From Pseudohongiella sp. O18 (GTDB lineage: Bacteria; Pseudomonadota; Gammaproteobacteria; Pseudomonadales; Pseudohongiellaceae), in contig NZ_JAJSAR010000002.1 of NCBI RefSeq assembly GCF_021729085.1, positions 992,001 to 1,056,000 on the forward strand: a DNA stretch of 64,000 bases, written 5' to 3'. A model generated the notes under the pieces. That model had not been told where the DNA came from. It made no database searches and saw only the letters and a program-made list of their open reading frames with translations. Positions 126-7,720 of this stretch are shown here, in pieces. How positions within the stretch are numbered: the first letter of the stretch is position 1; every line of letters begins with the position of its first letter. Both the position numbers and the translations under genes were made by a program.

Positions 126-300
126 GGGAGGTGGGTATCAGGGCTCGCCCGGAGCGCATCCTTTCACCTGTCACCCGGCGGGGGGGAACTCGACCTCGCG
201 GCAACGCCGCTCGGGACTCGGACAGTCCCGCCCGCTGATCGGGTGACAGGCAAAAGGATAAGCGCGCTCTTTATTGGGCGAGCCCTGATACCCACCTCCC
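126..300. repeat. 175-bp snap-back inverted-repeat element
   Basis: The outer arms 126-150 and 276-300 are perfect 25-bp inverted repeats. Inside them the complementarity continues imperfectly: GAGCGC, ATCCTTT and CCTGTCACCCG on the left match their complements on the right between about 240 and 268. The whole element can therefore fold into one long hairpin. It encodes no recognisable protein, and the open frame running through 36-365 looks like chance. The structure resembles a MITE or another non-autonomous mobile repeat. No target-site duplication was established. The rest of 1-368 holds nothing else I can support. Confidence 0.7.
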
Positions 301-1811: not shown

Positions 1812-1951
1812 AACCCCTCCTTCCAAACCAGAACCAACCGCGCCCTGAACTCGGCACAAAGCCCAATGGAGGCGCCCCGCTGACCCAAATCAACACCGCC
1901 GCGAGCTGGAAGCTTCAGTAGTAGCAGCGACGCCGCACTTAGCTCAATCGA

Positions 1952-2019
1952 GGCCTCGGGGATCGGGTGGCAAGGAGCGAGGAAAACCTGACGAGGACTG
2001 CCACCCGAGTTCCGAGGCC
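1952..2019 (+). other. Structured hairpin, copy A (candidate RNA or folded-DNA element)
   Basis: The outer helix pairs 1952-1959 (GGCCTCGG) with 2012-2019. A 4x4 internal loop follows, then an inner helix pairing 1964-1972 (CGGGTGGCA) with 1999-2007. The 26-nt apical region 1973-1998 contains CGAG (1978-1981) facing CGAG (1992-1995). These can form C-G, tandem G.A/A.G and G-C pairs around a ten-base loop. Copy B at 2184-2251 has the same size and architecture with different helix bases. The plus-strand assignment rests on a T.G pair in copy B that would be A.C on the other strand. Confidence 0.65.
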
Positions 2020-2183
2020 GGAAGCGAACAGTTTAGGGCCCGACCAGACGCGGCACAACGCTCAATCGAGTCGCCCCGCTGACCTCCCCCAACACCGCCG
2101 CACGCTGGAAGTAGCAGTTATAGCAGCGACGCCGCACGCAGATCAATCGAGGCCTCGGGAACAGAAGTACAAGATTAAATCGA

Positions 2184-2251
2184 GGCGTCGGGAGTAGCGG
2201 GAAAAGGAGCGACGAAAACCTGAGGAGGACTTTCCCGCTGATTCCGGCGCC
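2184..2251 (+). other. Structured hairpin, copy B (candidate RNA or folded-DNA element)
   Basis: The outer helix pairs 2184-2191 (GGCGTCGG) with 2244-2251. The 4x4 internal loop and the inner helix 2196-2204 (AGCGGGAAA) with 2231-2239 match copy A in length. The 26-nt apical region 2205-2230 differs from copy A at only two bases, C2213 and G2224, which replace G1981 and C1992 and keep a pair. Five of the nine inner base pairs differ between copies and every one remains complementary. Confidence 0.65.
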
Positions 2252-2338
2252 GGACGCGCTGAAGCTTTGCACTACCACTGAAGTCCCGAGGCCGGAAGCG
2301 CTGAGGTAAAACGCGTCGCGACAATCAATTAACAGGTC

Positions 2339-7012: not shown

Positions 7013-7684
7013 ATGGAACAGACCTCACTGACAGACCGGATCAACGCCGCCCTCCCCCAGACCCAGTGCACAAAATGCGGGTACCAGGGCTGTCGTCCTT
7101 ATGCCGAAGCCATCGCGGCAGGCGAGGCGATCAATCGATGCCCGCCGGGAGGCCCACAGACCATCACCGTCCTGGCTGAAATAACCGGACAGCCAGCTCA
7201 GCCCCTGAATCCGGAAGTCGGCCAGCACGTGCCGCTGCAGCGCGCTGTGATCCGCGAAGACGAATGTATTGGCTGTACCAAATGCATTACGGCCTGCCCG
7301 GTGGACGCCATCGTCGGCGCGGCCAAACTGATGCACACCGTGATCGCCAGCGATTGCACCGGCTGCGATCTGTGTGTCGAGCCCTGTCCGGTCGACTGTA
7401 TCGACATGATTACCGTCGGCACCGAAATCGAACCACCGAGTCGTGCGCAGGCGCAGGAATGGCAACTACGCTACGAGCAGCGCAAGGCGCGACTGATACG
7501 CGAAGCCGATGCACACGAGGCACGTCGTCAACTGCGTCTGCAGGAAAAACTGGCGACGCTGGACCGCGGTGAACAGCTGCAGAAAGACAGCATCGTCAAT
7601 TCGCCCTGGGCCAAGTCTCCCGAACAGCTGCGCGCCGAGATCATGGCGGCCGTGGCACGCAAAAAAGGAGGTAAAGGGGACTGA
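7013..7684 (+). CDS. Solitary RnfB-like ferredoxin protein
   Basis: A 223-residue iron-sulfur protein related to subunit B of the Rnf/Rsx electron-transport complex. A 4Fe-4S domain (C19, C22, C27, C43 in CTKCGYQGC and RCPPGG) is followed by two ferredoxin motifs, [16 protein letters not shown] and [16 protein letters not shown]. The C-terminal tail of about 80 residues is charged and helical. It lacks the N-terminal membrane helix of true RnfB, and no rnfA, C, D, G or E gene is nearby. I chose the ATG at 7013 because the protein from there starts directly with the iron-sulfur domain, although the frame is open far upstream. The gene order metG, rnfB-like, nth recurs in related bacteria. Confidence 0.85.
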
Positions 7685-7720
7685 GGGATTTAATAAGCTA
7701 AATCCCTCCGTCCCCTTTTA
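7683..7720. repeat. Hairpin plus shared AAAGGGGACGGAGGGA motif after rnfB-like gene
   Basis: A perfect 10-bp stem pairs GAGGGATTTA (7683-7692) with 7699-7708, starting inside the rnfB-like stop codon. On the plus strand a T-run follows (7716-7719). On the minus strand 7703-7720 reads TAAAAGGGGACGGAGGGA, nearly identical to a sequence starting at the ugd stop codon (19669). It may act as a terminator, but the shared motif suggests a dispersed repeat of the kind associated with REP/RAYT transposases. Confidence 0.55.

What the first reader, a model, noticed from the sequence alone, without database searches (positions are those of the whole stretch)
1952..2251. Two 68-nt hairpins with covarying helices upstream of sdaA
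Copies at 1952-2019 and 2184-2251 have identical architecture: 8-bp outer helix, 4x4 internal loop, 9-bp inner helix, 26-nt apical region. Five of nine inner pairs and one outer pair differ between copies, yet all stay complementary. In the apical region G1981-C1992 becomes C2213-G2224, the only two differences there. Next to that pair lie possible tandem G.A pairs (1979-1980 with 1993-1994). Base pairing is being preserved while sequence drifts, which implies a functional RNA or folded single-stranded DNA. A T.G pair in copy B (2188/2247) favours the plus strand. I do not recognise it as a known riboswitch or ncRNA.
Basis: partly seen in the sequence, partly recalled or inferred. Interest (0 to 1): 0.85.

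Follow-up and report, generated by a model that had tools for sequence, protein, structure and literature searches.

The report
Genus-wide hairpin repeats with constant tip
The two hairpins are copies of a family of DNA repeats, scattered at the ends of genes in one bacterial genus, that keep a fixed tip and keep their stems paired while the stem sequence changes, so the folded shape itself appears to be what matters.

Summary
Both 68-nt hairpins are present and fold better than all 200 shuffles. The "4x4 loop" is paired through G.U and A-U, leaving one purine-purine mismatch. The pair is not specific to sdaA. It belongs to a dispersed family: 15 copies in this genome and copies in 12 of 15 genomes of the genus. 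None was found in about 384 other genomes of the order (strict filters), nor at gathering score in Rfam (window), nor in plasmid or phage records.

Copies share a tip, 5'-GAGCGA-[variable stem-loop]-GAGGA-3', modelled as tandem sheared G.A pairs. It sits on a 14-34 bp stem that varies yet stays mostly complementary, with double-sided changes at orthologous loci. Of 88 filtered hairpins, 35 lie between convergent genes, 25 codirectional, 0 divergent. GNA triloops, a stable DNA hairpin motif, cap 60 of 76.

Best reading: REP/REPIN-like elements recognised as a folded single strand, DNA somewhat more likely than RNA, by an unidentified factor. Defining REP features (GTAG tag, flanking RAYT gene) were tested and not met.

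The parts
1943..2026 (+). Element A (subfamily I): left end CTCAATCGAGG, hairpin 1952-2019, right end CCGGAAGCG
   Evidence: ends inferred from where two similar copies at different sites (L018/L043) stop matching; no clean empty site found
1952..2019 (+). Hairpin A: 10-bp outer helix, A1962.G2009 mismatch, inner helix with bulged A1973
1975..1997 (+). Tip module A: GAGCGA (1975-1980), N-N' pair G1981-C1992, loop, GAGGA (1993-1997); proposed sheared G.A pairs and bulged G1977
   Evidence: the exact 3D pairing is inferred
2184..2251 (+). Hairpin B, same architecture, mismatch G2194.A2241
2207..2229 (+). Tip module B: GAGCGA (2207-2212), C2213-G2224, GAGGA (2225-2229)
2144..2300 (+). Decayed outer copy of the same element (arms 2151-2159 / 2285-2293) with element B lying in its loop; G003 has the same nested arrangement at the orthologous site
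1849..2159 (+). Direct duplication (1849-1960 and 2048-2159, 82%) carrying degenerate element ends; only one unit at the G003 orthologous site

Best explanation
The hairpins are two members of a genus-specific family of dispersed, non-coding palindromic elements that work like REP/REPIN elements. The cap-bearing strand folds into a long hairpin whose GAGCGA/GAGGA internal loop, at the end of a stem of about two helical turns, is recognised by shape by a protein that acts on single-stranded nucleic acid. DNA exposed in replication or repair is more likely than RNA. Shown here: the family, the fixed tip, double-sided changes at orthologous loci, strand asymmetry, placement at gene ends, inverted pairs, nesting, dispersal. 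Inferred: sheared G.A geometry, ssDNA rather than RNA, recognition by a protein, and a past role of that protein in spreading copies.
For: Family and dispersal: 11 pattern copies in own genome with 0 in the reversed-pattern control. 105 CM matches in 10 of 13 further genus genomes, plus 14 in G000 and 20 in G003, some of the latter partial. No match in about 384 genomes outside the genus. Two similar copies with unrelated flanks (L018/L043, 95% over 83 bp); nested copies. Fixed tip: GAGCGA/GAGGA exact in 86 of 88 hairpins; the filter allowed one mismatch in GAGCGA and A or G at the last base of GAGGA, no more. In 100 stretches of 20 kb, 25 hits against a mean of 0.9 (max 5) for 60 shuffled motif pairs; the stretches were partly chosen near copies. 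Structure kept: A2 covariation (rows not chosen by stem). 18 hand-picked orthologous sets from 15 of the 18 groups; one pair per set gives 42 double changes that still pair and 3 that do not, 14 single changes to a standard pair and 27 unpaired. P2 shows 14 different 5-bp combinations, all complementary in 75 copies; the filter had required the first 3 pairs. Placement: 35 convergent, 25 codirectional, 0 divergent of 88, with 24 at locus edges and 4 overlapping a call; also 0 divergent among the 36 copies. Close pairs in the 13 genomes: 13 of 14 minus/plus. DNA hint: GNA triloops 60 of 76, GC-GNA-GC in 46 of 78 tips. In codirectional gaps 12 sense and 13 antisense (my tally).
Against: No transposase linked: none of 24 Y1_Tnp loci (about 1.5 kb flanks) carries the element by the detector, and the matches viewed there belong to a different REP. 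Y1_Tnp is also present in the 3 genomes without copies. No clean empty site or target duplication. Replication-strand bias in G000 and G003 but not in G014 or G006. In G000 and G003 close copies are as often in the same orientation (6) as minus/plus (6; my tally). Detection required a stem, and unalignable ortholog members were left out, so broken stems are under-counted. Maintenance at fixed loci is more than dead mobile copies would show. C(GNA)G loops can also form in RNA.
Confidence: 0.45

Rival explanations
1. RNA-level element: transcripts running past gene ends carry the hairpin, and the GA-rich tip is a protein or RNase (e.g. RNase III-like, since stems are mostly 21 bp or more) recognition site that sets 3' ends or stability.
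For: Covariation with G.U tolerated on one strand; a stop codon within 60 bp of 50 of 88 copies; maintenance at orthologous loci.
Against: In codirectional gaps the cap strand is sense in 12 and antisense in 13 (tally). Where only one side has a stop within 60 bp it is more often the antisense side (32 to 12 copies, 22 to 10 groups, p 0.05). No promoter-like site in the window gap and no U-tract (1 of 88 per strand). Tip loops are GNA triloops. No CM match in 3 of 15 genomes.
Confidence: 0.3
2. No selection on folding: stems stay symmetric because replication template switching repeatedly corrects long quasi-palindromes, and the tip is homogenised by gene conversion.
For: Whole-arm symmetric change at orthologous loci; flips of the N-N' pair between G-C and C-G with no intermediate in A1 or A2.
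Against: Correction would also erase the mismatched GAGCGA/GAGGA loop, yet it is exact in 86 of 88 (filter as stated). G.U exceeds A.C (63 to 27; 35 to 13 copies), which a strand-blind process does not predict. No match found outside one genus.
Confidence: 0.12
3. A cis-regulatory RNA (riboswitch-like) of sdaA or dcd.
For: Location in the dcd-sdaA gap.
Against: The hairpin strand is antisense to both genes. Copies sit beside other genes such as acd and speD. Only G000 and G003 showed sdaA and dcd together; in 8 genomes the sdaA-like match lies on another contig or at least 18 kb away, and in 5 no sdaA match was seen. No Rfam family at gathering score.
Confidence: 0.02

Closest known systems
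REPINs / REP doublets with RAYT (PMC3116915 and PMC8266576: passages; PMC3733652: abstract and section 15)
   Same: Dispersed extragenic palindromes, inverted pairs, compensatory changes in the hairpin, mostly convergent or codirectional placement, strand-specific folded form
   Different: The constant part found here is the tip; hairpin of 68 to about 115 nt; no GTAG tag; no Y1 transposase gene seen flanked by the element; at most about 20 CM matches per genome; GA-rich internal loop
Other small palindromic families: NEMIS/Correia, ERIC, CIR (PMC2229807, first of three parts read) and stem-loop families (PMC2267715, abstract)
   Same: About 100-200 bp intergenic palindromes forming long stem-loops
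   Different: No target duplication seen here; stem sequence varies between loci while the tip is fixed
Integron attC sites (recalled, not fetched)
   Same: Sites recognised as folded single strand with variable but complementary stems (recalled)
   Different: Conserved part is at the tip; R/L boxes and an integrase were not searched for
Skipping-rope RNA RF02924 (recalled; one mention each seen in PMC7779021 and PMC8501573)
   Same: Long bacterial hairpin (recalled)
   Different: RF02924 not among matches up to E 1 in 7 loci or E 10 in 10 loci

Membership tests
REP/REPIN | GTAG (or CGTC) tag at the foot of the palindrome | tested here: not met
   0 of 78 copies with GTAG and 1 of 78 with CGTC in the 12 nt 5' of a 21-bp stem
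REP/REPIN | RAYT gene flanked by the same palindrome | tested here: not met
   0 of 24 Y1_Tnp loci hold a hairpin by the detector; R1 gave 15 matches there, of which 12 were viewed and are a GGGGACGGAGG-type (or close variant) REP
REP/REPIN | Inverted doublets | tested here: met
   13 of 14 close pairs minus/plus in 13 genomes; in G000 and G003 6 of 12 minus/plus and 6 same orientation (tally)
REP/REPIN | Extragenic, convergent or codirectional rather than divergent | tested here: met
   35, 25, 0 of 88; 24 edge, 4 overlap; heuristic gene calls
MITE | Target-site duplication / clean empty site | tested here: inconclusive
   Seven G000/G003 alignments show partial deletions and nested copies, no clean empty site
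Known Rfam RNA family | Covariance-model match at gathering score | tested here: not met
   window: 0; 7 loci at E<=1: 0; 10 loci at E<=10: 15 matches, all below gathering, 10 of them microRNA precursors, best E 0.0085
Intrinsic terminator | U-tract after stem | tested here: not met
   1 of 88 on each strand; background 1.9%
Integron attC | R and L boxes, integrase recombination | not tested
   no integrase search or recombination assay run

The most novel reading that the evidence does not exclude
A previously undescribed single-strand recognition system: a genus-wide set of chromosomal sites, each with variable but complementary arms of about 21 bp or more, read by shape through a GA-rich tip. 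It would be a third structure-read ssDNA site class beside attC and REP, with an unknown enzyme acting at the ends of transcription units.
Probability: 0.25. Interest if true: 0.85.

Novelty: new variant of a known kind. Interest (0 to 1): 0.62.

Why it matters
Bacterial palindromic repeats are usually defined by sequence. Here stem sequence changes at fixed loci while pairing and a mismatched tip are kept, so copies can be used to ask what a folded single strand does at gene ends. The 139 CM matches in 12 genomes give a ready comparative set, and the tip is a compact bait for finding the partner protein.

Tried and rejected
sdaA-specific riboswitch: rejected, since copies sit beside many genes. 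RAYT as mobiliser: Y1_Tnp searched in own genome and genus, no linked element. Hammerhead-like CUGANGA/GAAA resemblance: noted by eye and recalled, no Rfam match in the window, apical part replaced by other stem-loops in relatives, so taken as coincidence. The viral hit L090 and L053/L054 lack N-N' complementarity and were dropped as chance. G136 (E 0.004; sequence) lacks GAGCGA/GAGGA and was dropped. One truncated copy at a contig end (L047, + strand) was left out of A1. Replication-strand hypothesis: a hand tally, with positions, gives 12 of 15 (G000), 14 of 16 assignable of 20 (G003) and 3 of 7 (G014, positions) on the strand opposite the G-rich one; some lie near a skew switch or in a flat stretch. 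G006 gives 10 of 19 by script, several at near-zero skew. Not general. Fully unique arms: tested and weakened; 78 arms fall into 28 clusters, 36 of them chaining into one. Alignments A3 (wrong L022 coordinates) and A5 (shifted motif) were not used. In one search the L022/L026 coordinates were about 65-80 bp off. Gene contexts use my own codon-bias ORF caller, not annotation. For one search I picked 18 sets by hand from 15 of the 18 groups, leaving out groups 10, 12 and 14 and members whose arms did not align; some groups rest on one flank only and may link non-orthologous copies.

Full report
WHAT IS THERE. The two hairpins exist as described and on the + strand are more stable than all 200 dinucleotide shuffles as RNA; as DNA, 0 and 1 of 200 shuffles do as well. 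The minus strand of copy A folds about as well for its composition (z -6.67). They lie between dcd (dCTP deaminase, 2339-2908, minus) and sdaA (serine dehydratase, from about 1814, minus), identified by Pfam, on the strand antisense to both. The reported 4x4 internal loop is better read as paired: with the structure used, column pair 13-64 is G.U in 17 of 19 distinct rows, and the only unpaired position in the middle is a purine-purine mismatch (A.G 11, G.A 7, one G-C). No promoter-like site was found at 1800-2360, and terminator-like sites were as many as in shuffles (1 against 1.1).

A DISPERSED FAMILY. The apical 26-mer pattern with up to 3 mismatches occurs 11 times in the genome, with none for the reversed control. 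The CM R1 gives 14 matches, and a looser pattern adds one degenerate copy, L078, making 15. Copies fall into subfamily I (21 rows, A2) and II (the other 6 of the 27 rows of A1). In the window, hairpin B sits inside a decayed outer copy (2144-2300), and G003 shows the same nesting at the orthologous site. R1 found 8 of 137 family genomes: 7 of the 15 genus members and one weak match outside the genus that lacks the tip. The divergent members kept GAGCGA and GAGGA but had different apical stem-loops. A broader CM (R2 from A4, 14 sequences) gave 5 of 390 order genomes, all five in the genus. About 384 of the 390 lie outside the genus as far as the kinship column shows; 365 rows were not listed, and the strict filters used for large searches lose weak matches (G006 went from 10 to 19 matches without them). 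In 13 genus genomes R2 gave 105 matches in 10. With 14 and 20 R1 matches in G000 and G003 that is 139 CM matches at E<=0.01 in 12 of 15 genomes; G002, G005 and G011 have none. Not every CM match was inspected for the tip. Plasmid and phage collections gave no match to window 1930-2300 at E 1e-3. Rfam: nothing at gathering score in the window, nothing at E<=1 in 7 loci, only sub-threshold matches in 10 loci.

ANATOMY. A detector requiring GAGCGA (1 mismatch allowed), GAGG[AG], a stem of at least 9 and an apical stem of at least 3 gave 88 distinct hairpins. It drops most subfamily I and II copies, whose apical part is not a plain stem, and by design it cannot see copies with broken stems or other tips. 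86 of 88 have the exact tip; stems are 14-34 bp with a mode at 21. In 78 the apical part is long: P2 (5 bp; 14 combinations, all complementary in the 75 counted), a bulge mostly AATCA or AATAAA, P3, and a triloop in 76 (GNA 60, ANA 14, other 2). GC-GNA-GC occurs in 46 of 78. GNA loops give extraordinarily stable DNA minihairpins according to the titles of Hirao 1994 and Yoshizawa 1997, seen in the reference list of PMC6479982 (passages). The tip can be drawn as G.A, A.G, bulged G, C-G, G.A, A.G; in subfamilies I and II a further tandem G.A may follow the N-N' pair. This geometry is inferred.

STRUCTURE UNDER CONSTRAINT. In subfamily I, whose rows were chosen by the apical pattern and not by their stems, 13 of 24 pairs show double-sided changes. 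The N-N' pair is G-C or C-G in every row of A1 and A2. In the orthologous copies L016/L046 the N-N' pair flipped and an outer T-A became C-G, while another outer pair went from T.G to C.A and so broke. For the other types, flank BLAST gave 18 groups of 2 to 6 genomes. From 15 of these I picked 18 sets with alignable arms. One pair per set over 21 positions (378 in all) gives 42 changed on both sides and pairing, 3 changed on both sides and not pairing, 14 changed on one side to a standard pair and 27 changed on one side and unpaired; 287 unchanged and paired, 5 unchanged and unpaired. A hand estimate from the per-side rate of change expects about 11 double changes, about 4 of them complementary, if sides changed independently. 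Strand: G.U 47 against A.C 4 cells in A2; 63 against 27 in the 88 under a rule that treats both alike. Against wholly unique arms: 28 clusters among 78, one of 36.

WHERE THEY SIT. Of 88: 35 convergent, 25 codirectional, 0 divergent, 24 at a locus edge, 4 overlapping a call (heuristic gene calls). A stop codon lies within 60 bp of 50 of 88; where only one side has one, it is the 3' side in 32 and the 5' side in 12 (22 to 10 by group, p 0.05). Close pairs are minus/plus in 13 of 14 in the 13 genomes; in G000 and G003 they are minus/plus in 6 of 12 and same-orientation in 6 (my tally). By R1, the acd-speD gap carries the element in G000, G003, G001 and G007 (opposite orientation in the last two) and not in the other 11 genomes. 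The same preference for gene ends is reported for REPs (PMC3733652, section 15), and inverted doublets with compensatory changes for REPINs (PMC3116915, passages).

WHAT IT IS NOT. Not a REP by definition: no GTAG tag (0 of 78), and no linkage to any of 24 Y1_Tnp loci, some of which have their own different REP. Not an intrinsic terminator. Not a specific sdaA regulator. Literature searches listed no paper that I could recognise as describing it; I saw listings and the papers named above, and most subscription papers are not held.

HOW IT MOST LIKELY WORKS. Something reads the folded + strand, contacting the mismatched tip. DNA is favoured by GNA triloops, indifference to transcription direction in codirectional gaps, nesting, inverted pairing and dispersal. 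RNA is favoured by maintenance at gene ends. Neither is proven. Template-switch correction may help to keep arms symmetric but does not explain the fixed mismatched tip or the G.U excess.

Noticed in passing
window 126-300: A second palindromic repeat (25-bp perfect arms, 125 nt apart, with further inner helices); by eye, related sequence lies beside many of the elements (flanks of L002, L003, L004, L005, L007, L008, L035, L037, L039).
   Followed up: partly
window 7673-7718; L163-L168: A short palindrome resembling the REP (GGGGACGGAGGGATC...GATCCCTCCGTCCCC, with variants) beside the roughly 240-aa Y1 transposase genes of the genus; likely the genuine REP/RAYT system here.
   Followed up: partly
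L009 1501-1827 (G000:C1:798186-798512): The genome's only Y1_Tnp match (337-aa open frame); similar long frames occur in most genus genomes with no copy of the element nearby. Partner or function unknown.
   Followed up: partly
G003 contigs C6 (end) and C13 (start): G003 contigs end inside or close to copies of the element, so its copy number may be an undercount.
   Followed up: no
L288, L292 (G014): Two tip-bearing hairpins sit inside a larger palindrome of the GGGGACGGAGG type, a nest of two repeat families.
   Followed up: no
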